DNA of 64,000 bases from Emydura subglobosa. Its lineage: Eukaryota > Chordata > Testudines > Chelidae. Under the pieces are notes generated by a model. The model did not search any database. It was not told where the DNA came from and was given only the letters and a program-made list of their open reading frames with translations. The stretch covers positions 148,804 through 212,803 of the forward strand of contig ML679963.1 of assembly GCA_007922225.1 (NCBI GenBank), in the 5' to 3' direction. Shown in pieces: positions 1 to 39,300 of the stretch. Numbering within the stretch: position 1 is the first letter of the stretch; each line of letters opens with the position of its first letter. The translations under genes were made by a program, and so were the position numbers.

Positions 1-233
1 TACAAGTTAATTGATGGTTTGGTTATTTTTGCTGCCAGTTCTGCTAATTCAGCGTAGAATGAGAGTCAAATACAATTCTTTCTTTCTCACACATCACCAC
101 CACTAATAAGGTTCTACAAGTCACACTGCTCCCTTAATGACATGTGTGATCTATGGACTTCAATAATTGAAACCACAGTGCAGGACTCAGTCTACCCATA
201 GCAGTCAACTCCTCCTCTTTTACTTCCGCTTAC

Positions 234-393
234 CTCACAGAGTGATGGAGGGGGGGTTGGCCAAGATTTGTCCAAAACGTTCTTTGGTAAATTGCGTTTG
301 AGGTTCATCAAGAAGGAGTAGCGAATGTAATCTAGGAAGTATTCATTCTCTGAGCAGCGAGGGTAGTTCCGGTAAATAAAACCTTTAATAAAC
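234..393 (-). CDS. MYO1C: MYO1C exon: end of third IQ-like segment and start of TH1 tail
   Basis: Last exon of the gene inside the window, residues 764-817 of the partial protein. It opens after an AG acceptor with one base completing an Arg codon ([13 protein letters not shown]) and ends on a whole Glu codon before donor gtaagc. The stretch [17 protein letters not shown] followed by [13 protein letters not shown] is the conserved junction from neck to TH1 tail in myosin-Ic. The next exon is not within bases 1-233, so the tail continues outside the window. Confidence 0.95.
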
Positions 394-6300: not shown

Positions 6301-9300
6301 TCCATATCTTTCCTCTGAGAGCCTCTTCAGATGCTGTATTTACTGCTCAGCAAAGTCTGAAAGGCAAAACCCGCCGTGGGCTCTCCCCCCAGGTGAACTC
6401 TTTCTGTTTGCCTCTCCTCGGTTCGCAGCTCACTTGGTTCGCACCTGGCTGCTTCTTCTAAGGCTGCTGACTTGAAGCAGATGCCCCGCCTCAGTGCCTC
6501 CCTCTGCAATCAACCACTCCAGGTCCACCTGGAACAAAGCACTCCCAATTCATACTTTTCAATCAATCAGTCAGTCAGTCAATCACACGGCCAACTGCCA
6601 AACAATCCCTGTAACTGCATCAGTCACAATCACACACAGAGTCAGCTGTAACTTGCACCAGTCACACAAATGGTCTCTCAGATACTCACCCTTCTAGCAC
6701 ACAACACAGCTCCCCTCACGTCGCACTCACTTGGGCTCCTCTCGGACAGATCCCAGGCAAACTTCTTCTGTTCGCCTCTCCTCTGTTCGCAGGTAGGTTG
6801 GGAGGTGAATGGATTAGTTGAGGTGGAAAGGAGAAACCACCTTAGGGAGGAATTTTGGATGGAGTTGTAAGGAGACCTTGTCTTTGTGGACGACCGTAAA
6901 GGGTGGGTCAGCCATCATGGCCAGCAGCTTGCGAACCCGTGGAGCAGAGGTGATTGCTACCGAAAGATCACTTTCATGGAGAGGTAAGTGAGAGAGCAAG
7001 TGACCAGGAGTTCAAAGAATGGCCTGGTGAGGGTCAAGAAAAAAAGGCTGAGATCCTAAGGAGGGGTGGGTTTCTGAGACATCAGGAAGGTGTTGAGGAG
7101 GAAATGGGCTGTGGTTGGGTGGCTAAAGGCAGAGAAGCCATCAATCGGCAGAAGAAAGGCACTGAGCACTGCCAGATAGACCTCAGTGGATGAGTGGGCA
7201 AGGCCAGAGAGTCAAAGGTGGAGAAGATAGTTGAGGATGGTGGATATGGAGACTGAGTGCAGATGATGGTGGAACACCCATGTAGTGAAGCGCCTCCACT
7301 TTGCTTGGTAGCATGCTCTATTGCAGCGGTTCTCAACCGGTGGTACGTACCACCGGTGGTACTTACCGGAGGGCTGGGTGGTACGCGCAGCGTTGAATCC
7401 GCTGCCGCCGGACGGGCCCTCCCACCGACCCTTGCGAAACTCTGCTGCCGAAAATGGGGAAACGGCGAAAGGGTTTCAGCGGCGGGTATTGTTTCTGCCG
7501 TGAAACCCCGCCGCCCGTCTCTCCCCACCGCTGCGAAACCCTGCTGGAAATCCCTCCCGCCGCCGCCGCGGCGAAACCCTGCCGCAAGTCCCCTCCCTTT
7601 TTTTCCCCCCAAGTGGTACTCGGGTCGGGTACAGTCGGGTCAAGTGGTACTTGACCCGACTGTACCTGGCCTGAGTGGTACTCGGGGAAAAAAAGGTTGA
7701 GAACCGCTGCTCTATTGGATGGGTACCTGATGTGTGAAAAGACGTTGGACACTGGTGTGGAGCACACGTTGTCTGCATGCAAGCTCTGTCCAAATAGTAG
7801 GCCATGATGTGAAGCAGTTCTTGGGTTGGGGTGTCAGAGCTGATCATGTGCCTGCTTGAGGAAATTCGGGAGAGCGGGAAGGCGGATTGGAGGGTAAGCG
7901 GAGAGGAGAAAGAGGTCGGTGAACCAGTACTAGTGAGCTCAAAAGGGAGTGATGAGGATGAAGACTGTCCAATCCTGCCATATCTTGCAGAGGATCTGTG
8001 GGAGAAGCAGTATGGGTGGGAAGGCATATCGAAGTCCAGGTGATCAGGAGAGAAGTGTATCCCCCTGAGAGCCTTGCCCAAGAGTGACTCTGGAAGAGAA
8101 GAGGAGAAGCTTGTGGTTAGTGGAAGTTGCAAAGAGGTCCCAGAGTGGCATGCCCCACTGGCAGAAGATGGAGTGGAGATTGGGTCTTGGAGCTCCCACT
8201 CGTGGTTATTGTGGAAGGAGTGACAGAGTACCCGCAAGGGTGTTGTTGGCGCCTGGAAAATGGACTGCATAGAGTGTGATCCTGTGCTTGAGGCACCAGT
8301 TCCAAAAGTGAATGGCTTCCATGCAAAGGGCCGGAGACTGGGCTCTGCCCTGTTTGTTTACATAGATAATGGCCATCATGTTGTCGGAGAGGAATTGCAC
8401 GAGGGAAGTAGATGAGGGGCAGGAACGCCTTGCAACTGAGGCAGACGGCTCACAGTTCTAGGATGTTGATGTGCATCCTGGCCTCACTAGGGGACCATAG
8501 GCCTTGGGTTGTGTGGCCCTCCATATGAGCACCCCAGTCCACGAATGACATGTCTGTGGTGCAAGGCTTAGGAAGGTTGAAGGGAGTGCTGGCCACGATT
8601 TTGGCTGTGTTGCACCACCATGAGAGGGAAGTCAAGAGCAAGGGGGGGAGGGACTCCTCATTTGGTGAGGTGATCTACTTGTGGGTCAGATGGTGTGAAG
8701 CCACAGTTGGAGGCATCGCATGTGTAGGTATGCATACAGAGTGATATAGGTGCAGGCCATCATGTGGCCGAGAACAGAGAAGCATTATAGAGATGTGTAT
8801 GAGGACAACGGTGAAGGTGAGTGATGAGGAAAGTGAGAGTGGCAAAGCAGTCTGCTGGTAGAAAGGCTTGTTCTACAAGTGAGTCTAGTAGAGCTCCTAT
8901 GAAAGTGAGCTCGTGGATAGGTACGAGGGTCAACTTGTCCTCAATGACACAGATCGTCAGGCCAGGGAGGAAGTCTTGCAAGGTGTGGATGGTGATCAGG
9001 AGATGTTCTCAGGACAACACAACAAGGAGCCAGTTGTCCAGGTATGGGAACAATGTGGCCAAAGCATTTCATATAGGCCACCACTACCGTGAAGACCTGT
9101 GTGAAAAAGCAGCGAATGATGGCTATTCTGAATGGGAGGACTCAGAACTGATAGTGTGAGTGTCCCACCACGAAGTGAAGGAATTTGCGACAGGCGGGAT
9201 GTATATCCACATGGAAGTATGCATCCTTCATATCAAGTGCCACAAACCAGGCTCCAGGAGAGAGGCAGAAAATAATCTGTGGGAGGGTGACTATGCAGAA

Positions 9301-12300
9301 GCAGAACTTGCGAATGAAGTGGTTCAGATCCCGGAGGTCTAAAATGGGGCAAAGGACGCCCTCTTTCTTCAATATGAGGAAAAGAGGGGGTAGAATCCAC
9401 AGCCACAATAGTGGTTTTGTCACTAAAACTTTTTCGTTATCAAATGGGAGGTTCTCAAGAGTGGTCTGGATCTCCTTCAGGAAACCTGAAGTCTGTAACC
9501 AGGAGTCTCTGTGCAGCACTACTCCTGAGACCAAGGAGAGGGATGCTGTGTCTGCTGCGTCCACCTCAGCTTGGAGGGTTACCTTGACAACCAATTTGCT
9601 CTCCTTAGTCAAGGACTTAAACTTGGCCTGCCTGTCCTCCAGGATGGAGATCTGAAATCCCTCCAGTTTTGTGTACCACAGGAAGTTGTATTTTGCCAGT
9701 ATAGACTGGTAACTGGCAATGCGGAATTGCAGCCCTACTGAGGGATAGACTTTATGACTGAGGACTGCTCAATCTGGTGCTCATAAGTGTGCTTCTTATG
9801 AGCACAGTAGGGCTTCATCGGTGCCGTCGGTACTGCCAGTGGTGTCACTGTGAATGGAGCTGGAGAAGAGCTCATAGGTGGTGAGGCTAAACGCTCCCCA
9901 GTGGATCTCCTGGTGCCACATTCCAGTGGACACATGGGTGCATTGCCTCCTCCCTGAGGTGCTTTCAGAGCTGAAGCTCTCAGGCCTCACGAGACTGTAG
10001 TGGAAAGGAGCATCAGAAAGAGAAGTGGGTGACGACATGGGTGTCACTCATACAATATAGGCAACATTGGTGCTCATTGCTGAGGGAGACGTGTGGGCAT
10101 GAAGCACAGCTTTTAAAGTTAGCTTGCTGAGGCCTAGTCCCCCTTGGTGGGTGGGACACCCCGCACAGAGTGAAGTAGCAACTACTAACTAATTCCTAGC
10201 TACTAATTACTATATTAAGAAACTTTGAAAAACTATATACAATGATACTAGAAAATGCTATGCAGTACAAATGAGGAGGAAGAGGGGTTCTGACTCTGGC
10301 CACGCGGTGGTAAAAGGAAACTGGAAGGGCATTGACCAGCACAGCCTCATAAGACCTTGGACATACCACGTGGCCAACGCATAACCCATACATGGGTCGA
10401 TGGACACTACTATGAACAGTTCCGGCTCTGGCACATGGCGTGTATGCGCACCCCATGTTTGGAATCCACATTGGGACCCAGCACTCGAAGAATAATAATA
10501 GGAGTTGAAGGCTAGAAGGGACTTTAGATCGTATAGCACAGGTCATAAAGCAGCCAAATAACTATTTTGGATTCTCATGAGACAAAAACTAGATAAAGAA
10601 TCAGAATGGAGAAACTCAGAGGGTTGTTGATGATCATTCTACATCCTGATAACACTTCTCCATGGAGTAGAATGAGGACCAGAAAAGAATTTACTAGAAA
10701 TATAGAACACACACAAGCTTGTCTCTTTCACAAACAAAAGTTGGTTCAATAAAAGATGTTAACTCACCCACCTTGACTCTCTACAAATCAATTGTTTTAT
10801 CTTAACTGAATTTAGACAGCATCTTTTCCTGATCTGTGCCCTCAAGTTATAACTTTTGGTGTGAATTTCCTACACATTCCTAAAGACAGGAAAATGCTTA
10901 AAGCAGCACAGGCAGGAGAGGGAGTGTCACTAAAACCTTACCAGCTTGCTTAGCATCATTAGGTTTAATGCAGCGAATATATGATGGCTCCTTGGACATC
11001 AGAATTTCCATTAGTTTGGACAGACTGTTCTTAAACTGAGTTGCTGCCTAGAAAAAAGAAGAATGAAAGACTCAAGTCTGAAGTGACTGATTATGACTAG
11101 TTCTTGTGACACTGCAGCAGACAATTAAGACTAAGAACAAGTGTTTCAGTCTCAAAGCTTTAAACATAACGGAGGTCCTATTTTACACTACAGTGTTAGA
11201 GCAAAGGAGACATTATCTTCAATAATTGGAAATGTCTATGCTTCAGTTCAACTCCTGTGCTCTTACCGTTTCAGGTCTCTTTTTATCTGTCAGCTCACTC
11301 CTCTCAAAACAATGATTTATGATAGGATTCTCTGAGTTGCACATGGTCTAGAAAGAAACAGTAGAAGACAAACGCATGAACATTTTTAAAGCTGGACAGG
11401 ACAAAGTAGTAGCATGTGTATTTTTGGGAGATGGCAAGGGAACAGATGAGACCCAGGTTTTTTTATCTCTAATTTCTATGATAAACATCAATGATAAAAC
11501 AACTGGGACCTCAGGTTTTTTTGCATAGCATAGTCATGTGGACAATGTATCCTGAAGATTGAAAGGTCCAAGAGAGATGGTACCTTCACAGCCCTCTCCA
11601 TTCTTGACTTAATTCTTTACAATGCTCAACAAGAGAGGCAGTTCTCGCTCCACACTCACCTCCTTCAGGTTCCGAAATAGAAGGTCGTTGTTTTTATCCA
11701 GAAAACCTAAAGAAAAAAAAACAACTAAATCTGCTGCTGCTGTTTCACAGGAAGTCCTCTCCAAGGACCTTGAGCTGAAAAAGTAATTTGATTAACCAAA
11801 TTACATATTTAGATATTGTGTGACTGTATTAATCTGAATGGCAGGAGATAGGAGGAGAAAAAGGAAGTGTAACAGTCTGGAGTGGGGGAAAATGGGGACA
11901 GAAAGTGACCCTAGTATCAGGCAATGGTGTAGTTATTGTGTAATATTTACCTGTGATACTGTAGGTGACCTCTCCAGCATAGTGCAAGAGACGGAACTCT
12001 TCTCGGCCCAGAGATTTCCGAGTCTTCTGGTCAGCCAGCTTGTGTCTGGGAAGAAAACAAAAAGGCTTAATGAGAAAATAGTATCCTCAAATAGGATTCA
12101 GCCTCAAGTACTACTAATGCTAAGTATAGAACCATCACAGCTTTTGGTGGAGGGATGGGACCACAGGAATGCAGGAAAGCTGATAGTTTCTCTCCAAGAA
12201 CAATAATACAAAGGTAAATGGGAGCCATAGATCAGCAGCTCTGACTCCAGGCCCAGAAATATATTTAGACTTGTTCCAAAGGGATAACTGATTAAAAAAA

Positions 12301-15300
12301 AAAAAAACTAAAGAGAAAAACAAGGTTACTCACCAGTAACTGATCTTCTTCGAGACGTGCTGCTCACGTCCATTCCACTGTAGGTGTGTGCACACCACCG
12401 TGCACGGTTCCTGGAACTTTTTTCCCCTTAGCAGAACCCGTAGGGCTGGCTGTGGTGCCCCCTGGAGTCCCGCGCGCATGCCACGGTACATGAGGCACTG
12501 CCGGCCCTACACCCCCTCAGTCCCTTCTTTCCGCCAACTCCGGCAGCGGGGACAGGGCTGTGATGTGGAATGGACATGAGCAATACATCTTGAAGAACAT
12601 CAGTTACTGGTAAGTAACCTTGTTTTTTTTCTTCGAGTGATTGCTCATGTCCATTCCATTATAGGTGACTAACAAGCAATACCTTGGAGGTGGGTAGGAG
12701 TTACTGGTGAGCTGCCCTCAGCCCGACTTTGCCGAATCCCACGTCCTCTGTCGCCTGCTGGGCAATGGTGCTTGAGCTCCGGTTGAGTGCGCTGTGATGG
12801 TTCCCAATACGGACACCCTCGCCTCCTGGTTGCAGAACTTGATGCATGATGTAATCCGCGTTGAGATGCGCTGGGTGGAGATAGGTGAGCCTTTCATCCC
12901 ATCGGCCACTGTGACGAAGAGCTATGTTGATTTCCGGAACGGCTTTGTACGCTCGACGTAGAAGGCCAGGGCTCGTCTCACATCCAGCGAATGCCATCTC
13001 CTCTCCTCCTCCAAACCGTGAGATTTGGGAAAAACACGGGGAGAAAAATATCTTGATTACAATGAAATTGGGAAACCACCTTGGGTAGGAAGGCCGGATG
13101 TGGCCTCAGCTGAAACTTGTCCTTACAGAATACTGTATAAGGGTGCTCCGAAGTCAAGGCCCTAATCTCAGAGACCCTCCTAGCTGAGGTACTGACCACC
13201 AGGAAGGCTACCTTCCATGAAAGCATGAGCAGAGGGCATGAAGCTATGGGTTCAAAGGGGGGCCCTCGTGAGTCTCGAGAGGACCAGGTTGAGATCCCAG
13301 GGAGGCACTGGGTCACAGACCTTCAGATAAAGCCTCTTCACCCCCTTGAGAAACCTATTGACATGGGATGGGAGAACAGCGATCTCCCCTCTAGAGGCTG
13401 ATGGAAGGCTGAAATAGCCGCCAGGTGAACCTACAGCGAGGCCAGCACCAGACCCTGGAGCAGGTACTCCAGGATCGCCTGTATAGGCGAGAGGCTGGGG
13501 GGAATACCCTGGGACTCTGCCCAACAGGTAAACAGCCTCCACTTAGCCCAATACACGACCTGTGTAGAGAGCTTCCTGCTGCCAAGGAGAACTTGCTGGA
13601 CCTGCACCAAGCAGGCTCTCTCTCCCTCTGTCAGCCACAGAGCCTCCAGGCTGTGAGGTGCAGGGTGTCCAGATATGGATGCAACAGGCGACTGTGGTCC
13701 TGGGATAGAAGGTCATGCCGCCTCAGGAGGTCCAGGGGTGGGGCGATCGAAAGGTCCACAAGCATGCTGAACTAGTGCTGTCTCGGCCAGGCTGGAGTGA
13801 TGAGTATAATGTTCGCCCTGTCCATCTTTATTTTCAGTAGGACCTTGGGCAGGAGTGGAATGGGTGGAAACGCGTACATGAGGGTCCCTGTCCAGTCCAC
13901 GAGGAACACGTTGGAAACTGATCCAGTCTTGCGACCCTGGAGCGAGCAGAACCTGGGACACCGTGTTCCAGGCCGACGCGAATAGGTCCAGTTGGGGAAT
14001 GCCCCACTTCTGGAAGATCATAGCCACCACCTCTGGGTGAAACGACCTGCTGAGGCCATCCACCTCATCGTTCCTCACTTCTGGAAGATGAGAGGGTGTC
14101 AGGTGGAAATCATGCCTCACGGCAAGGTCCCACAGATGGGTAGCTTCCTCGCAGAGGGCTGAGGAGTGTGCTCCCCCCTGCCTGTTTATGTAAAACGTGG
14201 CTGCAGTGCTGTCTGTCAGCACCTGCACCACTCTGCCTGTCAGAATTGGAGGAACACCTTGCATGCTAGGTGAATGGCCCTCAGCTCCTTCACGTTGATG
14301 TGCAGGACCCTCTCCTCCCCCGACCAGAACCCGAGTGCCTAGGTTGACGCTGATGTGGGCTCCCCATCCCACGTCTGAAGCACTGGAAATTAGGGTGACC
14401 GACGGGACCAGTTCCCTTCATCACTGCCCTGGGAGTCTGCCACCAATTTAGTGAGGCTAAGACGGGTGGGGAACTGTGACCACCCGGTCCAATGGGTGTC
14501 TGCTCGGCACATATACCGAGGCCAACCATGCCTGAAGTGGTCTGGGCCTCAGGCGAGCTAGTCTCACTATGTACGTGCAGGCCACCATGTAGCCTAACAG
14601 CTGTAGGCAGAGCCTGGCTGTTGTCATGGGGCATCGGTGCAGCTGGGAGATGATAGAGACCATTGCCTCGAAACGTGGCTGAGGCAGGAAGGCTCTGACC
14701 TTGGAGGCGTCCAGGATAGCCCCAGTGAACTCTATTTGTTGCACTGGGGTTAATGTGGACTTCTGTTCATTTATGAGTAGCCCCAGCCTGCTGCACATGG
14801 AGCAAGTGAGGGTCACGCTGTCCTGTACCTGGGACCTGGACCTGCCTCTGATCAGCCAAATCATCTAGGTAAGGAAAAATTTGCACACCTTTTCATCTCA
14901 GGTGGGCAGCCACTAGCGCCATGCACTTGGTAAACACCCTTGGAGCTGAAGATAGGCCAAAGAACAGGGCTGTAAACTGGTAGTGGGAACCAGTCACCAT
15001 GAAATGGAGAAAACACCTGTGGCTGGGGAGGATAGACACATGAAAGTATGCGTCCTTGAGGTCAAGGGCAGCATACCAGTCTCCTGGATCCAGGGAAGGT
15101 ATTATGGAGGCTAGGGAGACCATGTGAAACCTGAGTCGTTTGACATATTTGTTTAGACGACACAGGTCTAATATGGGTCGCAGACCTCCCTTTGCCTTGG
15201 GGATGAGGAGGTACCTCAAATAGAACCCCTTCCCCCTTCTGCCTTGAGAGACCATTTCCACTGCTCTCAGGTTGAGGAGGGTGTCCACCTCCTGCAAGAG

Positions 15301-18300
15301 GAGTTGCTTGTGAGAGGGGTCCCTGAAGAGGGACGGAGGGGAGGTTGTTGGGGGGGGGAGGGGGTAGATGTAAACTGCAGGGCATAGCCCCCTGAGACTA
15401 TCCCAAGGACCCAATGGTTCAAAGTGATTTTTGCCTATTCGGGGTAGAAGGGCCTTAACCTGTTTAGGAAGGGGCGGGGCGGATGTAGGAGAGCAGTCGC
15501 GGCACTACCCTCGGGCGCACCATCAAAATTGTCTCCTTTGATTGCCCGACCTCCTGGGGGACCCCTGCTAAGGAGCCGAGGACAAGCTAGGGGGCTGATT
15601 TCTTCTTCTAAACCTCTTATTTCTAACCCTATAGGGTTGGAAAGGCCTGGACTGAGGCCTTGGTTGCTGCTGCGCCTGGGGTTTTGACTGACGCCTGGAA
15701 AACTGGGGTGTGTAAAGGCCCAGGGAGTGAAGCGTGGCCGTGGAGTCCTTCAGATCATGCAACTTCGCATCGGTCTGGTCCAAGAATAGGGCTGAGCAAT
15801 AAAAGGGGAGGTCCTGGATAGACTGTTGCATCTCCTGGGACAGGCCCAAGGATTGCAGCCATGAGCACCTTCACATACAGATGGCAGAGGCTATGGACCT
15901 GCCTGCCGAGTCGGCAGCATCACAGGAAGTCTGGAGCGCTGCTCTAGCTACCGTGGTTCCCTCCTCCACGATAGTATTAAAGTCTGTAGCCTGGTCCTGG
16001 GGCAGGGCCTCAGCGAACCGCCTGAGGGAGTCCCACAAGTTGAAATTATATCTGCCCAGGAGGGCCTGATGGTTGGCAATCCTGAACTGCAGGCTTGCCG
16101 TGAAATAAAGCTTTCTCCCAAACAAGTCCAGCTTCTTATTGTCCTTGTTCTTGGGAGTCGACCCTGGCTGACATCTCCTGTCTTGCTGGTTAGCCGTGTC
16201 TACTACCAGGGTTTCTGGGGTGGGGTGTATGAACAAATACTCAAACCCCTCAGCCGGGACACAATATTTCTTCTCGGCCACCTTTAACTAGGGGTGACCG
16301 AGAAAGGGGTTTGCCACAGGGCCTTCACAATCTTAAGGACACCTTTGTGGTCCTTAGCTCCTCCACCTCCAGCCCCAAGTTGGAGGCCACCCTCTTGAGC
16401 ATCTCCTGGTGCTTCCTGAAATCCTCCAGTGACACAGAGTGGTCCTGGGAGACTGCCTCGTCAGCTGAGGAAGAGGAATGCAGAGGTGCAGCCTGTGGGT
16501 GTGCCCCCTCCTGGCGAAGGGTTGTACCCACTGAGGGTCCTTCCAGGGGGTCCGACTCCCTGTTCGAGGAGTGGTACCGATGGGCCTTCTCCTGTGCCAG
16601 AGGCACGGACTGCACCCCCGACGACTTAATGGATTGGGGTCCCGGCCCCACCTGGATAGCCCAGGGAGCCCAATAAGGCCATTGTTGTGGCCATTGTCCC
16701 TGTGGCCAACCCAGGGCTAACTGCGCCACATGCTCTGATGCATTGGGGGGCGTCGACTTGCCCGACAACTTTCCCCCCTGGAAGACCCCAAGTCATCGTT
16801 GGAGTCAGAGGCCCTGGACTGGTGGTGCCATGTTCATCCTCGGTCCCGGGCACTTCCGTGCCGGGACCACCCTCTTGACACCTCCAACCTGGAGGATGAT
16901 GGGGACTGTCTCCGTCGCCGTGAGCAGTGTTGACGAGTGGGGGCATGCTACGAAGATCTAGAGGTACCTGAACGTCATCTCAGTACTGATGATTTCTGCT
17001 GCAACTTGCCTTTCAGCTCTGCAGACACCCTCGGTGACTGAGGTCGGCGCCATCACGAACTCCTCGGTACCGAGCCTAACTCCGGCGACTAGGTTCCACG
17101 TTGTGAACTCTGCGGTGCCGGGTCTTCCTCTGATGACCGGGTTCCGCGCCGCCTCAGTGTGGGTGAACTCATTGGTGCCGGGTCCTCCGATGGCGACCAG
17201 GTTCTTCGCCATCTAGGTATGGGCGAACTCCTCAGTGCCGGGGATCTGGAACTGGAGCTGTCTGAGCGCTGCCTGGCAGACCTCGACCAGTACCAGGGAG
17301 CGACATCAGCGCCGAGAGGGAGACTCCACATCCCATGCCGGTAGGTTGGCTCAACGCCGCCAACCTGGAGCAACTGCTGGGGGAGCAGATCTGCTCTACC
17401 CCTGGAGGTCGTTCGGCGGGAGATCTTCCTCCCCATACCGAGGATATCCACCACCCTTCGGGGGGCCCCTACGCGGCTGGCCGGAGGTGGTGTAGGCAAG
17501 GCCAACAAGGCGCTTGCTGCTTGAAAAGCCTCTCGTGTCGATGGCGTTGGCAGGGGCACTCTCCCACTCCCAGGAGTTGGGGGAGGCTCCCTGACCGGAG
17601 ATGCAGGCACCGGAGAAGTCTCGATGGGCTGGGTCTGGTGCATCTCCATACTTGACCCTGCCTATACTGACGGTGCAGGGGAGTGTCCACGCTCCACGCC
17701 CTGCTTCTTTCTCTTCAATGCCGGAGATGTTGTGCGGTGTTGAGTCGAGGGCGGCGCCGACGGTGCGCTCTGTACCGAAATCATGCTCGGTACTGAGGTG
17801 GAGTGGGTAAGCTCGGACGCCAGTGGAGCGCTGCCTCCATCAATAGGGCTTTCAACTGGATTTCTCGGTCCTTTTGTGTCCTCAGTTTGAAAACCCTGCA
17901 AATCTTTCACTTATCTTTTCTGTAGGCTTCCCGCAGGCACTTAAGGCAGCAGTTGTGGGAGTCGCTGAGCAGGAAGGTCGTCTTGCAGGAGGCACACAGC
18001 TTGAAGCCAGGCGACTGGGGCATGGCCCAGCTGCTCTAAGTCCCCGCAGGGACTGCCTTATCCCTAACTACACGTAACAACACTTAACAGAACTAAATAG
18101 AACTAAACTTAGAATATCAAACAAGTCCAAAGAAGGGGAATAGTACTTGCAGAGAGCAAGGCTAGTTCCAGCAACCTTCGTGGGCGGAAAGAAGGAACTG
18201 AGGGGGCGTAGGGCCGGCAGCGCCTCATATACCGCGGCATGTGCGTGGAGCTCCAGGGGGCACTGGAGCCAACCCTACAGGATCTGCTATGGTGAAAAAA

Positions 18301-27300: not shown

Positions 27301-30300
27301 ACCCCTTTATCCTTCTGCCTCCTCTGCTCTACCAATGATATCAGCCTCATCTGCCTGTTGGTCAGCTTTTCCCACAAACATCATTGTGCCCTCTTTTTGG
27401 CCATCCCTTACACCTGGATTATCCTCTCTAACCTGATCTGTAAGGCCACTACCCTCTTCTCCAAATCCCTCCTCAAGACCATCTCTGGTGCGATGCCTAC
27501 AAGAAATAATCTAATTAATAGCGGACCAAAAAGCAAATGTGAAAAAGTTGACAACCTATAATTCTCTTAATGCAAATACAGATCAATTTTATTTATAATT
27601 TATTGTATTCCTCTTTTCCCACTCTTCACGTCAGTTGTCATCTTAAATTGTAAGCGCTTTGGGGAAAGAGGGTGTTTATACTGCATCCAGCACAGATACA
27701 GTAATCCTAATCAGAACATCAGGACACTACTTATTTAATAATAAATAGTGAGTACCAGCAGGGGCAGGCATGCCATCTATTTAGTGGGGGAGGGGGTTGG
27801 TGTAGAGTAAGAGAAAGCCAGTGGGGTGCGACAATACGGGGAGAAACTTATTACAGCAACTAGGAGGTTGGGAGTGAGGTTAAATAGTTCAGACACCCAC
27901 CCACCCTGCAAATATATGGCTCTGGAACAAAAAGAGAAAAAAGAGAGAGACTGCTCTTCTGTCTCTCAGTAGCCAAAAGGGGGTTTGGAGAGAAGGTAGA
28001 CTCCAAAATTGATATGAAAGATGAAGCCCCTGAGTGGGATCTAGGAACAGGATACTGGCAGGAACTCCAGAACTTGGGAGTGTATATTAAGTTCTCAACT
28101 GAGCAATGCTCCAAGACAGTAGAATAACTGTTTATGGCCATTAGGACTCTGGTAAAACTCTAAGGTCCTGCATATGGGTGCGTGGATAGGCATGGGATGG
28201 GCAGCAGAAAAACAGGGGATAAGCTAGAAAAGAGACGCAAGATATTTAGGCCAGGTCTACACTACAAAGTTTTGCCAGCATAGCTGTGCTGGCAAATCCC
28301 TCTGTGCAGACACAGTTTATACCAGCAAAAAGAGTCCTTCTGCCAGTATAGCTTATTGTCATTCGGAGCGATATACCAGCAAAACAAATCCTTTTGCTGG
28401 TATATACTTAGACGTATTACTGGTATAACTATACCAGCAAAGGCTCTGTAGTGTAGACTAGTCCTTAGAAAAAGGAAGAGAGTCAGAAAATACAGGGAGG
28501 AGGTAGAGAGCACAATAGGGCGGGGGAGGAGGAGGAAAGATCTAACATAAACAAGAGAGATGGAGTTAGTAGGGCTGGTCAAATGGTACTCGAGGAATAT
28601 TTTATGCAACGAACGGGACAGCGGTTATTAAACTATTTATTCAGCAATTACTTTGTGCTGTACTGGAGCAGCTCACAATAGGTCAAATACTATTCTGCAA
28701 ATATGTTAATCAACAAACAAGATAAAATATATTGAATAATATATTCAGAGAATATTTTTTCTGCATTTACTAAAAATATGTGACTATTAAGCATAATACA
28801 CAAACATTACACAATTATGTTATTCCTATAATATCAGGGGGGCATAGGCTCAGAGAAAGTATATGAAGGTATTTTTCCCACACAAGCTAATAGGAATTGG
28901 GTAACATTTTCAACCTCTTGACTAATTATTTCAGACAGAAAAGAGACTTTTAATTGATGTCGTCCCTTTAATAATGTCAAGATCTAAAACTACTAAATCT
29001 TATCCTGTAGTAATACAACAACAGAACTAAGTATGTTGCTATATGGGAATGTTTCCAAGGGATTATACTCACCCTGGCCAGATATTTAATCTGGTTCTCT
29101 GTTGTCACCTGAGTATTGCCCTGTTCATCTTCAGCAAACTGCACATTCCCCAGATGCAACACACTAGCTACAATGCTCAGCAAATCCTAGTATAAGAAGA
29201 ACACAGAAGAAATAATGGTCAAGAAAATGGGAATTAATATGGATTAAATTTTAGTGAAGGCTGGGGAGAGAGAGGGGAGTTCCTTTATATGTCCATTACT
29301 GGAAGACATTTTTATATTTAGCTTTCTGCAGGGCAAACATTCAAAGGCTGCCATCTGGCAGAAAAAAATAACTGAAGCAGGACACTCCTTTAAGGGGAGA
29401 AGACTTAGATGTCCTGCAAAGTATTTCTTACCTCTATCTCATTGTCACTGAAGTTAATGACTGACAGGGCCCTTCGCACAACCTTCCAGTCGTTTTTATC
29501 ACTGATGGAACTGACCCTTGCACACTGACCCTAAAAACACAGATTTTGAGAGATAGTAACCTTACAGTCAGACATATTGTACATACACCCCTTACAGTTC
29601 TATCATGTTAACTGTTACAGAAGGGCCATCTCACAGTTATCTCACTGTAACTCAGTGAAGTGAGGAAAAGACACTGAGAAGTAATAAACGAAGAATCGCA
29701 TTTATCCTATAATACAGGATCGTTAGTAATGTTCATCATTATTAACTTTTCTCCCAGAAAGTTTCTCTCTCCTTCAAGACAAACACTCTGATCTCTCCTT
29801 CAACACCAACCAAGTCTATTGGGTAAGTACATTTTTTCTCTTTACTGAACATGCAAACCAAATTTCCCAAGAAATTAGCAAACTGCTGGACCCTATTCAC
29901 ACCTTCACTAGATAATGGTAGTGTTGGGGATTCTTTTCAAGGCCGAGACGCCGCAGTAGGTCATCTTCCCCTCCCTCTAACAGCTGGTAGAAGATGTGAA
30001 AATTCCTCTCTCCGTGATTCTGATGGACAACCCGAGATTTCTCCAGTAGGTAGTTCAGGATGTGACCCCCCACAGGTGCCCCCTAAACCAAAAAAGATAA
30101 ATTTAAATATTCACAAGGACAAAGGAAAATTCTGCTGCTTCTTTGATAGCAGAATATCAAAGAGAGTTCGGAATAATGGGTTACAAAAAATAGAAGTAAT
30201 CTTTGTCATGTAATAGCATCATCATCTAGCTCATAAACTAACAGATATTGAGTGCAAGCTTGAGCTCTTGGACATCCACAGAGTAGATCAAAAACAAAGT

Positions 30301-33300
30301 ATTAGAGAATAAAACTAAAAATATAATGCCACCCCATCACAAAAAAAATTATATGTCTCTTGACTTGGATTCCCATCCATGTCTCTAATAATCTTGTTGC
30401 CATTCTCTGGACCTTTTCCATTTCTCCTATATTAGAGAAAAGAATGGAATCCAGATCGAAAGAGATATTTAAAAGCTTAGGACCATTTCAGTTTATCTGG
30501 GTATTTACACTATAATTTTCATGGCATTGTGGTATTTTGTTTAGAGAGGACACAAAAGATAAGTTAAAGAAAATTAAGGTTGTCGTCCCCCCCCCAGGAC
30601 CCCTGTGCCCTCCATTAAAAAAAATCTACATAAAAATGGAGATGATTCAGTAAAAATGGAGCAGAGATTCATATTTTTCTCCAAAAGTAGGTGGCCAACT
30701 GGTGTGAGATTTTTCACTGGATTAATTTTTATGCCCTTTGAACTATTAATGAAGTTTTGATTTGGTTTCTCTTAATATATTTTTAACAGAAAACCTTTGA
30801 ATCTGTGCCCTGGCTGAAATCTTTCCTTGGAGTCCTACTTTTCACTATTGAAAAATATCTCCTAAAAAACCACTGACTAGCTATTCAAAGGTTGGTAAAG
30901 AGGTGGCCCTGAAGAAAAAGGGTGTAATGGGAAGGTTTTTTAAAATGTTTCATCTACGGTCATTTTTAGCTCTTAATTGAATTATAATTGAAAGTTTGTG
31001 AGCTGTGCCTACAAGCATGATTAGTTGATGGGAGCTGCACGCACACACACAAAAATGGTTACTAACTTTCCATAACTGTTCTTTGAGATGTGTTGCTCAT
31101 GTCCATTCCATGTCAGGTGTGTGTGTGCACCAGAAGCACAGGTGCCAGAGATTTTTCTCTCAGTAGTATCTGGAGGGCCAGCTCTAACACCCTCTGCAGT
31201 GATGCACAAATGCAACGGTATAGGGGTGCTGCTGAGTCCCCCTATCTCCAGTTCCTTCTTGTCAGAACTCCAACAGAGGAGAAGGAGGGTGGGTCATGGA
31301 ACGGACATGAGCAACACATCTCTAAGAACAGTAGTTACAGAAGATTTAATAACCACTTTTTCTTCTTCAAGTGTTTGCTCATGTCCATTCCATGTCAGGT
31401 GACCCACAAGTAGGACCTCTGGAGGTAGGCCAGGAGTTCACAGGTGGACCAATTATAATAACCACTCTGCCAAAGCCTCTATTGTCCCAGGCCTGTTGCG
31501 TGATGGAATAGTGGCAGGTGGCAGCAACGCCCCTCAGCCCCTGGATCCCACCTTGCTTTGGTCTGGTCTCCAGTCTCCCGCCTCTCCCTTCCAGCAGCTC
31601 CCTTGGCCCCGCCTACCCCATGAGAGGTCCAGGGCCTCTAGGTGCACTGTGCCTGGCCGCCTCTGCCCCCGCAGCCCAGCCCCTGGCCGGCACCAACACC
31701 CTTGAGCCTCTGGATCTCTCCCCCTGCCTTGGCGACTCATACCTCGGGACGTGAAGGTATAAGCAGAAGACCAAGTCGTTGCCCTGCAAATGTCCTGTAT
31801 TGGAACCTGAGCTAAGAAAATCACTGACAAAGCCTCTATTCTTGTTGAATGGGCTGTCAGAACGGCAGGAGGCATGACCTTTGCCTGCTTGTAACAAGTT
31901 TGGATGCAGGTGGTGATCCAGAAGGAAATCCTTTGTGATGAGACTGGCAAACCCTTAATTTGCTCAGTGACTGCAATGAAGAGCCGTGCAGATTTTTGGA
32001 AGGGCTTAGTTTTTTCGATGTAGAAAGCCAATGCTCAGCTGACATCCAAGGCGTGCAGGCATCTCTCTCTGCTAGAGCTGTGAGGCTTTGGAAAAAAGAC
32101 TGGAAGGAAGATGTCCTGGTTGACATGAAATTGTGAAACCACCTTTGATAGAAATGAGAAATGAGGGCACAGCTGAACTTTATCTTTGTAAAACACAGTA
32201 TAGGGAGGATCCGATATTAGAGCCTTGATTTCAGAGACTCGCCTCACTGATGTAATTGCCACCAGAAAGGCAACTTTCCATGATAAGTGAAAAAGCGAAC
32301 AGGATGCCATGGGCTCGAAGAGAGGCCCAATGAGTCTGGACAAAACTAGGTTGAGGTCCCATGGGGGAACCGGGTCTTTGATCTGCATAATGAGCCTTTC
32401 CAAGCCTTTCGGGAATCTGGCCACGACCTCATGGGAGAAGATTGATCTGCCCTGGATACGCGAGTGAAAGGCTGAGATGGCCGCCAGGTGTATCCTGATT
32501 GACAATAATGCCAACTCTTGATGTTTCAAGTAGAGTAAATACTCCAGAATGGAGTGCAACAGTACCTGGGTTGAGTAGAGGTTTTGTTCCGCAGCGGAGC
32601 AGGAGAAGCATTTTCACTTTGATACAAGAGATTTTTAAGCTGCGTCCAGTTCATACAAGGACATCAGCACCAGAGACAACATCAGTGGCGTACTGGGGGG
32701 GAGGGGGAGCAAGCACTCAGATGCAGGCCTACAGGAGAGTGCTGGCCAGGCCCTCGGAGCAGGAGCAGCCCCGTCACAGGCAGCCAGGGCGTACTCCCAG
32801 GCCCCTCCGCTAGGTGCAAGGGGATCAGAGCCTGTCATACCCCTTGCACCCCCCACCCGCTGCTGAGTGGTCCCCACCACTCCCACAGCGGGGGGGAGAG
32901 CAGGAAATGGGCCCACAGAGACCCCCCCCATGGGGCACTGCCCACACTGCTGCTGCCACTGATGGGGGAGTGGGGAACATACCGCTGCTATTGCTGCCGC
33001 CGCCGATGGTGAGGAATTGTGGAGAGTGGGACACAGGCCTGCAGACCCTCCTACGGGGCACTGCTGCTGACGGGGGAAGTGGGGAGAGCGGAAAACAGGC
33101 CAGCAGACACACACACCCGCCCCATGGGGCGCTGCTGCTGATGGGGGAGGAAGATGGGAGGGGCGCCAATATAAGTCTGGCCCCCAGGAGCCAGAGACCC
33201 ATGGTATGACACTGGACAGCATGTAGCCACACAGTTGAAAAGCAGACAGGCAGAGAGGAATAAAAACATTGTGGATTTTCATCTATTCTAATTACAACAA

Positions 33301-36300
33301 CAAATGTGGTGATATCATCATAATGTTTAGGCATGAATAAGAATATAGTTAGTTTTAGATTTAAGGCTTTTGATAAATAGTAAATAATGATAGCTTAGAG
33401 GAAGTTTTAGTTAGAAATCTAAAATGGTGGCCTCGATGATGTCATGTTAGAGAGAGAGAAGATTATTTAAACGGAAACCCCTGGTAAACCCTTGTACATC
33501 TCCTAAGGCAGACCACTCCCCATTACCTGCTTTTAGAATTAAGGCTTGGGATTGGTTCATTAGTATACCTAAGCCACTATGGGGTCATCTGGATCCAAAG
33601 TTTAGGGTAACAGTTTTGCCAGGTAAGTAGCTCTAGTAGAGGATTTTCTGCTTTCCAGCAGGGCTTTCTGAACCTGAGTGGAGCAAGCCTGCTTCTCAAG
33701 GCTTAATCATGCAGCATCCATGCCATCAGATGGAAGGAGGTTCGGTTTGGGTGTAACAGCCAATTGTGATCCTGTGAAATCAAGTCAGGGCGGTCGGGAG
33801 TGTCCAAGGGGCTGCTACTGGCAGATCCAGCAATGTGTCAAGTCAGTGTTGACGGGACCATGCCTGAGCGAGCATTATGACCCGCGCTTTGCCCCCCTTG
33901 ATCTTTTTTGTGGATGAGAGGGATCGGTAAAAAGGCGTACATCAGGCCTCTTGGCCACTGCAGGAGAAATGCGTCAGGAAGCGAGCTGCTGTTGGGTCCA
34001 TGAAGGGAACAGAAACACTGACATTTCCTGTTCTGTTTGGCTGTGAACAGGTCCACCTGGGGAGAGTTCCCATCTCCGGAAGATAAAACAAGGTTACTTA
34101 CCAGTAACTAATGTTCTTCGAGATGTGTTGCTCATGTCCATTCCACTACAGATGTGTGCACGCTTCCGGGCACGGTTCCCAGAACTTTTTTCCCCTTAGC
34201 AGATCCCGTAGGGCGGCTACGGCACCCCCGGAGCCCTACACACATGCTACGGTATATGAGGTGCTGCAGACCCTACGCCCCCTAAGTCCCTTCTTTCTGC
34301 CAACTCTGGCAGCGGGGGGTGGGTTGTGGAATGGACATGAGCAACACATCTCGAAGAACATCAGTTACTGGTAAGTAACCTTGTTTTCTTCTTCGAGTGA
34401 TTGCTCATGTCCATTCCATTACAGGTGACTAACAAGCAATACCTTTAGAGGTGGGTAGGAGTTAGCGGTGAGCTACCCTCAGCCCAGTTCTGCTGAATCC
34501 CATGTCCTCTCTCACCTGATAAACGATGGCGTAGTGGGACGTGAAGGTATGCACCGACGACCAGGTGGCAGCTTTGCAGATATCCTGCAGGGGCAATCAC
34601 TCCAGGAAGGCTGTAGATGAGGCTTGAACTTTGGTTGAGTGTGCTGTGAAGGTTCCCGGGAGCGGCACCCTCTCCTGCTTGTAGCAGAACTTGATGGAAG
34701 ATGTAATCCGCGAGGAGATGCACTGGGTGGAGACAGGTGAGCCTTTCATCCGGTCAGCGACTGCGACGAAGAGCTGCATCGATTTCTGGAATGGCTTTGT
34801 ACACTCGATGTAGAAGGCCAGGGCTCGTCTCACATCCAGCGAATGCCATCTCCTCTCCTCCTCCAAAGTGTGCGGTTTGGGAAAAAACACGGGGAGAAAA
34901 ATATTTTGATTACAATGAAATAGGGAAACCACCTTGGGTAGGAAGGCTGGATGCGGCCTCAACTGCAAATTATCATTATAGAATACTGTATAAAGGGACT
35001 CCGAGGTCAAAGCCCTAATCTTGGAGACCCTTCTCGCTGAGGTAATGGCCACCAAGAAGGCTACCTTCCATGAAAGCATGAGCAGAGGGCATGAAGCCAT
35101 GAGTTCAAAGGGGGGCCCCCGTGAGTTTCGAGAGGACCAGGTTGAGATCCCAGGGAGGCACTGGGTCACAGACCTGCAGATAAAGCCTCTTCACCCCCTT
35201 GAGGAACCTGACTGACATGGGATGGGAGAACAGCGATCTCCCCTCTAGCGGCTGATGGAAGGCCGAAATGGCCACCAGGTAAACCTTCAGCGAGGCCAGC
35301 GCCAGACCCTGGAGCTTTAGCTGGAGCAGGTACTCCAGGATCGCCTGTACAGGAGAGAGGATGGGCGGAATGCCCTGGGACTCCACCCAAGAGGTAAACC
35401 CTTAACACTTAGCCCAATACACGGCCTGTGTGGAAGGTTTCCTGCTGCCAAGCGGGACTTGTTAGACCTGCACCAAACAGGCTCTTTCCCCCTCCGTCAG
35501 CCACAGAGCCTCCAGGCTCTGAGGTGCAGGATGTTCAGGTCTGGGTGCAACAGGCGACCATGGTCCTGGGAGAGAATGTCGTGTCGCCTCAGGAGCTCCA
35601 GGGGTGGGGCGATTGAGAGGTCCAGCAGCATGCTGAACCACTGTTGTCTCAGCCAGGCCGGAGCGATGAGTATAATGTCCACCCTGTCCCTCTTAATTTT
35701 CAGCAGGACCTTGGGCAGGAGCGGAACGGGCAGGAACGCGTACGAGGGTCCCCGTCCAGTCGATGAGGAACGCGTCGGAAATTGACCCTGTCTCGCAACC
35801 CCGGAGCGAGCAGAACTTCGGACACTTCGTGTTCCAGGTCGACGCGATTAGGTCCAGTTGGGGAACGCCCCACTTCTGGAAGATCATAGCCACCAACTCT
35901 GACTGCAATGCACCAGTCGTGGCGGTGACCTGCTGAGGCGATCCGCCTTGTCGTTCCTCCTCTCGGGAGGTGAGAGGCAGTTAAGTGGAAATCATGCCTC
36001 ATAGCCAAGTCCCACAGACAGGTAGCTTTCTCACAGAGGGCCGAGGAACACGCTCCCCCCTGCCTGTTTATGTAGAACATGGCTGCGGCGTTGTCCGTCA
36101 GCACCTGTACCACTCTGCCTGTCAGGAAACAGAGAAACACCTTGCACGCTAGGCGAATGCCCCTCAGCTCCTTCAATTTGATGTGCAGGCGCCTTTCTTC
36201 CGCCAACCAGAAGCCCTGAGTGCCTAGGTTGGCGCTGATGTGGGCTCCCCATCCTACATCCAAAGAGTCAGAAATTAGGGTGACCGATGGGACCAGCTCC

Positions 36301-39300
36301 CTGAACGCAACACCCTTCATCACTGCCCTGGGAGTCCACCACCAGTTCAGGGAGGCTTAGATGTGGGGGTGAACTGTGACCACCTAGTCCAATGGGTGTC
36401 TGCTCGGCACATATACCGAGGCCAACCACACCTGAAGCGGTCTGAGCCTCAGGCAAACTAGTCTCACTACGTACGGGCAGGTCGCCATGTGGCCCAACAG
36501 CTGTAGGCAGCGCCTGGCTGTTCTCGTGGGGTGCCGACGAATGGAGGTGCGCTCCGAAGAGCTAGAGGCACCGGAGCATTGTCTCAGTACCGAAGATTTC
36601 CGATGCAGCTTGCCTTGCGGTCCTATAGACACTTTCGGTCACTGTGGTCGGTGCCGCTCCAAACTCCTCAGTGCCGAGCTGAACTCTGGTGACCAGGTTC
36701 CGTGTCATTGACTGCCCAGTGCTGGGTCCTCTGATGGCGACTGGGTTCTGCACCACCTCGGTGCGGGCGAACTCCTCGGTGCTGGGTCCTCCGATAGTGA
36801 CCGGGTTCTGCGCCGCCTCGGTGCGGGTGAACTCCTCGGTGCCGGGATCTAGAATGGGAGCTGTCCGAGTGCCGCCTGGCAGACCTCGTCCGGTGCCGCC
36901 TCCTGGCATGCGCTGCCTCTGTTGCTAGGGATTGACATCGGCGCCGAGAGGGAGACACCACATCCTGTGTTGAAGCAGGTCAGCTCGACAACACTAACCT
37001 GGAACAACTGCTGGGAGAGCGTCTCTGCTCTACCCCTGAAGGCCATCCAGCAGGAGATCTTCCTCCCCACTGCCCTTCAGGGGGACTCAACACGGGTCTC
37101 CCCCATGACACCGGCCCCTTCTCCCTCGGTGGGGGGGGAGGGGGATGGAGGTGGCATAGGCAAGGCCAACAAGGCTCTTGCCGCCTGAAAAGCCTCCGGT
37201 GTCAACGTCATTGGCAGGGGCACTCTCCCACTCCCAGGAGTTGGGGAAGGCTTCCTAACCGGAGATGCAGGGACCGGAGAAGACTTGACAGGCTGGGTCT
37301 GGTGCATCTCCGTGCTCGACCCTGCCCGTACTGACAGCAGAGGGGAGTGTCCGCGCTCCGCTTCTTCCTCTTCGGTGCCAGTGGTGTTGTGCGGTGCCGA
37401 GTCAAGGCCAGTGCCGGCAGTGCGCTCTGCACCGAGGTCACGCTCAGTGCCGAGGCGGAGTGGGCCGGCTCGGATGCCGGGCAGAGCGCTGCCTCCATCA
37501 GCAGGGCTTTCAACCAAATTTCTCGGTCCTTTTGGTCCTCAGTTTAAAAGCCCTGCAGATCTTACATTTGTCTTTGCTATGCGCTTCCCCCAAGCACTTA
37601 AGGCAGCAGTCATGGGGGACGCTGAGCAGGAAAGCCTTCCTGCAGGAGGCACACAGCTTGAATCCCGACAACCAGGACATAGCCCGGCCACTAAGTCCCT
37701 ACAAGGATTTGCCTTATCTCTAACTACTCTAAAAACGACTTAAATACTTAACTAAAACTAACTTAGAACAACAAATAAGTTCAAACAAGGGGAATAGTAC
37801 TTGCTGAAAGCAAGGCTAGTTCCAGCAACCGTCAAAGGTGAAAAGAAGGAACTGAGGGGGCGTAGGGCCGGCAGCGGCTCATATACCGCGGCATGTACGC
37901 AGGGCTCCAGGGGGCACCGGAGCCGGCCCTACGGGATCTGCTAAGGGGAAAAAAGTTCTGGGAACCATGCACGGAGGCATGCACATACCTATAGTGGAAT
38001 GGACATGAGCAAGCACTCGAAGAAGAACCCTGACTACCTTTGGGTATAGGGGCCTCTCATGGCAAGAGAGGGACCTGCTCAGGTGATCTGCCAACATGTT
38101 TTTGACCCCCAGGAGGTGCAAGGCTTTGTGGTGGGTTGCATGTTCCATGTAGAAGTACCATAGATGGAATGCCTCTTGGCAAAAGTCTGAGGATCTCGCT
38201 TCTCCTTGCTTGTTGACATAATGCATTGACAGACAATACAGGATCAACATCCTTACCTTTCCTGTCATCTAGGGAAGGAACACTTTGCAGGCTATATAGA
38301 TTGCCCTGAGCTCTCTGACATTTGTGTGTAATGTGGACCAGAGGCCTTTTGTCCTGAGAGAGCTGATGTGGGTTCCCCACCCTAGGTCCGAGGCATCCGA
38401 TACCAAGGAAAGTGTTGGGCAGGGGACCGCAAAGGGAACCCTTCTTGCTACATGGGCAGGGTTTGTCCACCATGCCAATGAGGCAAGTACTCAAGGCGGG
38501 ATCATAAGGATCTTGTCCAGGCTGTGTCTTGTCATGGAGTAAATCAACGCTAGCCGCATTTAAAGGGGTCTGAGACGCAGTCTTGCATACTGTACCATGT
38601 GAGTACACACTGCCATGTGACCCAGAAGTCTGAGGCAAACTCTTGCTGTCGTGAGGGAGTGAGCGAGCTGTGACCTGGGTGATCAGCTGTGACATGGTTT
38701 GAAATCTGGTTTGTGGTAGAAATGCTCTGGCCCATGGGATTAACTACAACTGTAACTACTAACTCTAACTAATTAACTTATCTAACAAACTATGTACATT
38801 AAATCTACAGATGAAACCACTGGCAGAAGACTTGTGGAGGCAAGAATGTTCCAGCACTGGGGGGCTGGCAGTGCCCCTAATATTGGTGCATACGTGCACC
38901 ATTGCAGAGGGCACTAGAGCCGGACTACAGATACCACAGAGAGAGAAATCTCTGGTACCAGTGCATGTGGTGCACAAACACACCTGACATGGAATGGACA
39001 TGAGTAAGCACTCAAAAAAGAACAGATATATAGGGGCCAGGAGCACACAAAAGCTTCCACATTACAAGCTACACTTTTCTGTCAGATTTACCCTACGACA
39101 GCGAGCAGTTCATGCACAGCTGATGGTGGATAAAATATTCTCTTGCCATACTTCTACCTTGTCTCTCTAACATCCTGGGACCACCACAGCTATAACAACA
39201 CTGCAAACATACTTCTACCTCCACAGGTCTTCATCCCTCTCCTCTCATCCAATAATGCCCACCCCCCAATTAAACTTTAAAAAAACCCATGACATTAATA

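What the first reader, a model, noticed from the sequence alone, without database searches (positions are those of the whole stretch)
6796..39020. Five DIRS-like tyrosine-recombinase retrotransposons in four introns of one gene, all in sense orientation
Elements D (6796-10490), A (12322-18372), E (19400-22401), C (31054-39020) and B (34090-38025, nested) are all coded on the minus strand, the same strand as MYO1C. Transposons kept in introns are usually biased to antisense, where they disturb transcription less, so five of five in sense is unexpected. At least two age classes are present (A/B similar; C, D and E decayed). The MYO1C exons remain intact across the cluster. Either the elements prefer this locus or orientation, or their sense insertion is well tolerated.
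Basis: partly seen in the sequence, partly recalled or inferred. Interest (0 to 1): 0.75.

Follow-up and report, generated by a model that had tools for sequence, protein, structure and literature searches.

The report
Old DIRS retrotransposons in turtle MYO1C
Introns of the turtle MYO1C gene hold several worn-out DIRS jumping genes that all point the same way as the gene, but with only four independent insertions of a common family this agreement is what chance often gives.

Summary
The minus strand carries turtle MYO1C: 23 coding exons, 809 codons without a stop, 97.5% identical to loggerhead MYO1C. Introns 4, 12, 13 and 17 hold DIRS-like sequence, with coding matches on the gene's strand only. 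A, B and C show inverted termini plus an internal complementary region, the DIRS1 hallmarks. D is DIRS by RT, RNase H and YR pieces. E is shown only by about 0.6 kb of gag; its 5' end is unproved.

The surprise is not supported. B lies inside C, so four intronic events are independent. Four of four in sense has p = 0.06 one-sided, 0.125 two-sided, noticed after the fact. Published integration usually uses an NTT trinucleotide on the element's sense strand; here TTT exceeds AAA 790:571 on the introns' sense strand, giving p about 0.11. DIRS is 3.2% of a published softshell turtle genome. The copies have few poly(A) hexamers on either strand, a possible reason for tolerance, though they are also GC-rich. 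The genome-wide orientation count, the decisive test, did not complete.

The parts
228..44794 (-). MYO1C coding exons in the window: 23 exons, 22 GT-AG introns, 809 codons, no stop; the protein continues beyond the low end
12316..18375 (-). Element A: DIRS1-like copy in intron 13 with pieces of gag, RT, RNase H and YR, ORFs broken; ends 271 nt before exon 14
12316..12378 (-). A right terminus; complementary to right ICR 12565-12627 (56 of 63 match)
12565..12667 (-). A internal complementary region (right and left ICR meeting at a T-run, the presumed circle junction)
18333..18375 (-). A left terminus; complementary to left ICR 12625-12667 (39 of 43 match)
34085..38028 (-). Element B: DIRS1-like copy nested in C, with RT end, RNase H, YR, both termini and ICR; lacks roughly the counterpart of A 14.73-17.11 kb (most of RT and gag)
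34323..34427 (-). B internal complementary region
31051..39023 (-). Element C: DIRS1-like copy in intron 4, split by B between its RNase H and YR parts; no gag and only the end of RT found; termini and ICR recognisable
31286..31401 (-). C internal complementary region
6796..10490 (-). Element D: decayed DIRS of another family in intron 17, gag end, RT, RNase H and YR pieces; right end missing where a CR1-like LINE begins
19400..22401 (-). Element E: DIRS gag similarity shown only for 19419-20018; the rest, including the proposed 5' end, is unproved
3400..6796 (-). CR1-like LINE (label recalled; reverse transcriptase match PF00078 at 3923-4621) that abuts D in intron 17; borders read by eye

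Best explanation
These are ordinary remains of an abundant turtle retrotransposon order (DIRS1-like) that entered MYO1C introns in at least four separate events, plus one nested event. By the published model each copy was reverse transcribed into a circle whose 3-bp junction (here T-rich) recombined, through the element's tyrosine recombinase, with the same trinucleotide in the intron, leaving no target duplication; the strand of that trinucleotide sets the copy's orientation. That all point with the gene is most likely chance among four events, perhaps helped slightly by the T excess on the intron sense strand and by the scarcity of poly(A) and strong acceptor signals in the copies, so that sense copies were not removed. 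Shown: identity (E in part), placement, strand, termini and ICR of A-C, nesting by position, intact exons. Inferred: the integration route, neutrality, the cause of the orientation.
For: Termini and ICRs of A, B and C. RT of A and D match PF00078, both under the curated cut-off; A's RT is 76% identical over 72% of its length to a Chelydra protein with PF00078. B's YR ORF has 53 database relatives, the best from turtles, one named Tyr recombinase domain-containing; 3 of 4 relatives scanned match PF00589 (E 0.0018, 0.01, 0.13), all under the cut-off. NTT stands at both borders of A, B and C, as in the published model (PMC3266345, passages). Orientation odds: 0.0625 at equal odds, about 0.11 with the measured TTT share of 0.58 and 0.07 with the ATT share of 0.51. 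Poly(A) hexamers in 20,849 element bases: 3 sense, 6 antisense, against 32 and 36 in 20,345 host intron bases (the CR1-like stretch included); acceptors at or above the MYO1C median 0 and 0 against 4 and 1. DIRS is 3.22% of the Pelochelys cantorii genome.
Against: No genome-wide count was made, so a real sense excess of DIRS in turtle introns is not excluded. DIRS takes up to 32.6% of this window, about ten times the published average for another turtle. The four insertions lie 271 to 969 nt from the nearest exon (E by its proposed borders), where sense copies of human L1 and mouse LTR elements are rare (27.7% and 30.1% sense; PMC3088655, passages); under such odds four of four would be 0.006-0.008, so the locus speaks mildly against an LTR-like rule for DIRS. 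The copies are not free of splice signals: donors at or above the median number 10 in sense and 10 in antisense, against 5 and 9 in host intron. The low hexamer count follows partly from their higher GC content. The splice matrix rests on 22 introns of one gene, and surviving copies have already passed selection.
Confidence: 0.8

Rival explanations
1. Orientation is biased by the integration chemistry: the recombinase needs NTT on the element's sense strand, these introns have more T than A on the sense strand, so DIRS lands in sense more often in genes.
For: T:A 5869:5104, TTT:AAA 790:571 and NTT:AAN 2017:1610 on the sense strand of 17,895 intron bases outside the elements and the CR1-like LINE; NTT at the borders of A, B and C; published NTT rule.
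Against: The measured shares (0.51 for ATT to 0.58 for TTT) give only a small bias: 4 of 4 rises from 0.06 to between 0.07 and 0.11. In intron 17, which holds D, AAA exceeds TTT (68:56) and AAN exceeds NTT (178:168).
Confidence: 0.2
2. Selection removes antisense DIRS copies, for example because their antisense strand carries harmful signals, leaving sense copies.
For: Antisense strands of the five copies carry 6 poly(A) hexamers against 3 in sense. For human Alu near exons selection against antisense copies has been proposed (PMC3088655, passage).
Against: Counts are tiny; strong donors are equal (10 and 10) and strong acceptors absent on both strands.
Confidence: 0.06
3. MYO1C or its transcription attracts DIRS, or earlier DIRS copies attract later ones, so that clustering and orientation are not independent.
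For: B lies inside C in the same direction; DIRS makes up to 32.6% of the window against 3.22% of another turtle's genome.
Against: D differs strongly from A-C, so more than one family is involved, and one nesting is seen. The window was singled out for this cluster. No second locus was counted.
Confidence: 0.08
4. Assembly artefact: repeats collapsed or joined wrongly.
For: Repeat-rich locus; no read data here.
Against: 23 exons are in order with correct splice sites; A and B are 80-93% identical in most of the segment pairs shown (20 of 26 families listed; the 60-nt repeats of family D8 are less alike), C less alike; C's own parts lie in order on either side of B.
Confidence: 0.02

Closest known systems
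DIRS1-like retrotransposons (Piednoel et al. 2011, PMC3266345; passages seen)
   Same: Inverted termini, internal complementary regions meeting at a short circle junction, T-rich termini, RT, RNase H and YR in one direction
   Different: The copies here are broken; B and C are internally deleted. The methyltransferase domain was not tested.
DIRS1-like elements of turtles (Abascal et al. 2015, PMC4495291; parts 1 and 2 of 3 read)
   Same: Host group; order gag, RT, RNase H, YR
   Different: Their gag is related to the LAP2alpha domain; Pfam gave no LAP2alpha match for the four gag pieces of A and E scanned
Sense DIRS exons in TMPO/LAP2alpha and ZNF451 (same paper)
   Same: DIRS sequence within a host gene, in sense
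   Different: There it forms an exon with a poly(A) signal; here no exonisation was tested or shown and few poly(A) hexamers are present
Antisense-biased intronic LTR and L1 copies of mammals (PMC1794541, PMC3088655; passages seen)
   Same: Retroelement copies in introns near exons
   Different: Those are depleted in sense (human Alu is not, 47.7%); the four events here are all in sense, too few to set a rate

Membership tests
DIRS1-like retrotransposons | Inverted terminal repeats | tested here: met
   A, B, C: left and right ITRs align over 170-197 columns at 80-86%; D's right end is lost, E's ends not shown
DIRS1-like retrotransposons | Internal complementary regions matching both termini and meeting at a short junction | tested here: met
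   A, B, C; not seen in D and E, whose right parts are missing
DIRS1-like retrotransposons | Integration at NTT without target duplication | tested here: inconclusive
   NTT at both borders of A, B, C and no duplication, read by eye in 3 of 3, without a control; no empty orthologous site was available. Joining B's flanks gave consecutive parts of C's RNase H region, the 3' part only weakly (E 0.053).
DIRS1-like retrotransposons | Tyrosine recombinase | tested here: met
   B's YR ORF: 53 relatives, best ones from turtles; 3 of 4 relatives scanned match PF00589, all under the cut-off. Three YR pieces of B and C scanned had no Pfam match. HxxR (motif recalled) reads HSTR in C, HSTK in B, HSTG in A, and is kept in 6 of 9 relatives aligned; 6 of 9 reach the tyrosine, C does not.
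DIRS1-like retrotransposons | Reverse transcriptase with RNase H | tested here: met
   PF00078 in A (2.9e-6, 27.6 bits, cut-off 29.6) and D (0.0028); A RT relatives carry PF00078. RNase H assigned by order and mutual similarity, no Pfam match for the pieces scanned.
DIRS1-like retrotransposons | Methyltransferase domain | not tested
   Named as a DIRS1 feature in PMC3266345
PAT/Ngaro elements | Split direct repeats (named for PAT in PMC3266345; for Ngaro recalled) | tested here: not met
   A, B and C have inverted termini with an ICR instead

The most novel reading that the evidence does not exclude
DIRS copies in vertebrate genes are not antisense-biased like LTR elements, and may even be sense-biased, because the recombinase reads an NTT trinucleotide that is commoner on the sense strand of introns and because the copies are poor in poly(A) and acceptor signals.
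Probability: 0.22. Interest if true: 0.5.

Novelty: new member of a known kind. Interest (0 to 1): 0.2.

Why it matters
If DIRS really escapes the antisense bias, it would separate two causes of orientation bias, signals in the element and the strand of the target, and would help explain why DIRS was exonised in genes such as TMPO and ZNF451. This locus alone cannot show it, but it gives a precise genome-wide test. As it stands it is a clear example of ordinary transposon decay in a turtle gene.

Tried and rejected
Genome-wide orientation count: the genome search on the window's own assembly was sent 12 times and never answered, so nothing was counted; whether that genome is held is unknown. 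I did not search the bacterial, viral, phage or plasmid collections, which would not inform turtle introns.

DIRS orientation in print: searches (DIRS with sense orientation, orientation bias, antisense orientation) listed 1, 2 and 3 papers; I opened none of these six, and no title or abstract start shown mentions a DIRS orientation count. PMC9004415 was seen in passages and gave nothing on orientation.

LAP2alpha domain in gag: no Pfam match for the four pieces given (A 16328-16792 and 15874-16287, E 19898-20260 and 19281-19676; only a chance-level CheB match at E 0.078 for one of them). E's 5' terminus: not supported beyond shuffles except marginally against B. Age by mismatches between terminus and ICR: A 11 of 106, B 5 of 106, C 12 of 104 plus 4 gap columns; B looks youngest, as nesting in C demands, but I ran no test, and such counts do not clearly separate A from B. 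Upstream exon of the long MYO1C isoform: not found in the window. Reading frame across the joined flanks of B: depends on the exact join, not settled.
Full report
What is there. The minus strand of the window carries the turtle MYO1C gene. A tblastn search with a recalled human MYO1C found its exons in order. From those hits I picked 23 by hand; a script guided by the human protein chose splice sites (AG acceptors required, GT or GC donors allowed) and linked them through 22 introns, all GT-AG, giving 809 codons without a stop. The product matches loggerhead (Caretta caretta) myosin-Ic at 97.5% over its full length without gaps and solved myosin-Ic chains. The extra upstream exon of the long isoform was not found in the window, so the sequence above 44.8 kb may also be intron.

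The elements. A, B and C share sequence and carry inverted termini plus an internal region complementary to both termini. Terminus against ICR gave A 56 of 63 and 39 of 43, B 63 of 65 and 38 of 41, C 55 of 66 (4 gap columns) and 37 of 42 matching columns. This is the arrangement described for DIRS1-like elements, whose termini are usually NTT and which are thought to integrate at an identical genomic trinucleotide without target duplication (PMC3266345, passages). The borders of A, B and C read NTT on both sides (by eye). The RT of A matches PF00078 just under the curated cut-off and a Chelydra protein at 76% over 72% of its length. The YR ORF of B matches 53 proteins, the best from turtles; one is named as a Tyr recombinase domain protein, and 3 of 4 relatives scanned match PF00589 under the cut-off. 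In the alignment, HxxR (motif recalled) is kept in 6 of 9 relatives; A has HSTG, B HSTK, C HSTR, and C lacks the tyrosine that 6 of 9 relatives reach. With their broken ORFs the copies are very likely dead.

D has pieces of gag, RT, RNase H and YR at 27-58% identity to the other elements' proteins, so it is another family; its left terminus resembles A's and B's but not C's. It stops where a CR1-like LINE begins. E is supported only by gag similarity at 19419-20018 (E-values 2e-8 to 1.5e-11); its proposed 5' end beats shuffled sequence in one of four comparisons, narrowly. B lies within C: C's termini are outside, its RT end and RNase H part lie before B and its YR part after. The joined flanks of B show the RNase H region of A running on, but the piece after B matches only weakly (E 0.053) in its own frame, and a longer match crosses the join in another frame, so the exact empty site is not settled. 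B lacks roughly the counterpart of A 14.73-17.11 kb, and in C no gag and only the end of RT were found: both are internally deleted.

Orientation. tblastn of 21 DIRS pieces against both strands at E up to 0.01 gave minus-strand matches, except 4 plus-strand matches of one query whose end runs into an inverted terminus. But B is inside C, so the independent intronic events number four.

Expected odds. In 17,895 bases of MYO1C intron outside the elements and the CR1-like LINE, the sense strand has TTT:AAA 790:571, NTT:AAN 2017:1610 and ATT:AAT 467:442. If a copy's direction follows its target trinucleotide, the sense share is 0.51-0.58 and four of four has p 0.07-0.11. Intron 17, which holds D, has the opposite ratio (56:68). 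For comparison, full-length copies within the published underrepresentation zones near exons (under 2 kb for L1 and LTR) are 27.7% sense for human L1 (644 of 2328) and 30.1% for mouse LTR elements (435 of 1447), while human Alu is 47.7% (472 of 989) (PMC3088655, passages). The four insertions here lie 271-969 nt from the nearest exon. Under L1 or LTR odds four of four would be 0.006-0.008. So the locus argues mildly that DIRS does not follow the LTR rule, and hardly at all for a sense preference.

Why sense copies may be tolerated. The antisense bias of ERVs is put down to poly(A) and splice signals on the sense strand (PMC1794541, passages). Over 20,849 element bases I counted 3 poly(A) hexamers in sense and 6 in antisense, against 32 and 36 in 20,345 host intron bases (CR1-like stretch included; pieces under 60 bases dropped). 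Acceptors at or above the MYO1C median in a small matrix were 0 and 0 against 4 and 1. Donors were 10 and 10 against 5 and 9, so the copies are not free of splice signals. The elements are more GC-rich than the introns, which alone lowers the hexamer count; and this is a post-selection sample. It is a hint only. DIRS can be exonised in sense: TMPO and ZNF451 in mammals carry DIRS gag exons with poly(A) signals (PMC4495291, parts 1 and 2 of 3). A Trachemys protein named syntaxin-binding protein 2 begins with 111 residues 69% identical to the DIRS recombinase of B before its Sec1 domain, a gene model that may or may not be a real transcript.

How common. In Pelochelys cantorii DIRS makes 3.22% of the genome in 195,999 annotated pieces (PMC10620421, one passage). 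I infer, without a count, that genes with four or more intronic DIRS copies are frequent in such genomes and that about one in eight of those with four would be one-sided by chance. The density here, up to 32.6% of the window (counting all of E), is high, but the window was picked for the cluster.

Verdict. The elements, their introns and their strand are real; E is only partly shown. The orientation is not surprising at this sample size. The finding is an example of known DIRS biology. Whether DIRS copies escape the antisense rule is open and testable; the genome-wide count was not run because the own-genome search was unanswered in 12 tries.

Noticed in passing
P0018 (245 aa), found from window 34600-35190: A Trachemys scripta protein named syntaxin-binding protein 2 begins with 111 residues 69% identical to the DIRS recombinase of B, then continues as a Sec1 domain: a gene model with a sense DIRS exon in another turtle gene.
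   Followed up: partly
window 12334 and 34102 (minus strand): The last 20 or so bases of A and B carry a donor-like motif (GTGAGT, GTAAGT) scoring at or above the MYO1C median, so a sense copy ends with a potential splice donor.
   Followed up: no
window 12295-12320 (minus strand): A inserted into a T-run that reads TTTTTCTCTTTAG and then a longer T-run, 271 nt before exon 14; by eye it resembles an acceptor.
   Followed up: no
window 3400-6796 (-) and 57509-58155 (+): CR1-like LINE sequence (label recalled) in both directions; the first abuts D and is also in sense with MYO1C.
   Followed up: partly
window 7600-7694: Two adjacent 46-nt arms, 80% complementary, 3 nt apart, inside D: perhaps a small inserted element.
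   Followed up: no
window 32620-33840: About 1.2 kb within C between its RNase H and YR parts without any DIRS protein match: perhaps a later insertion.
   Followed up: no
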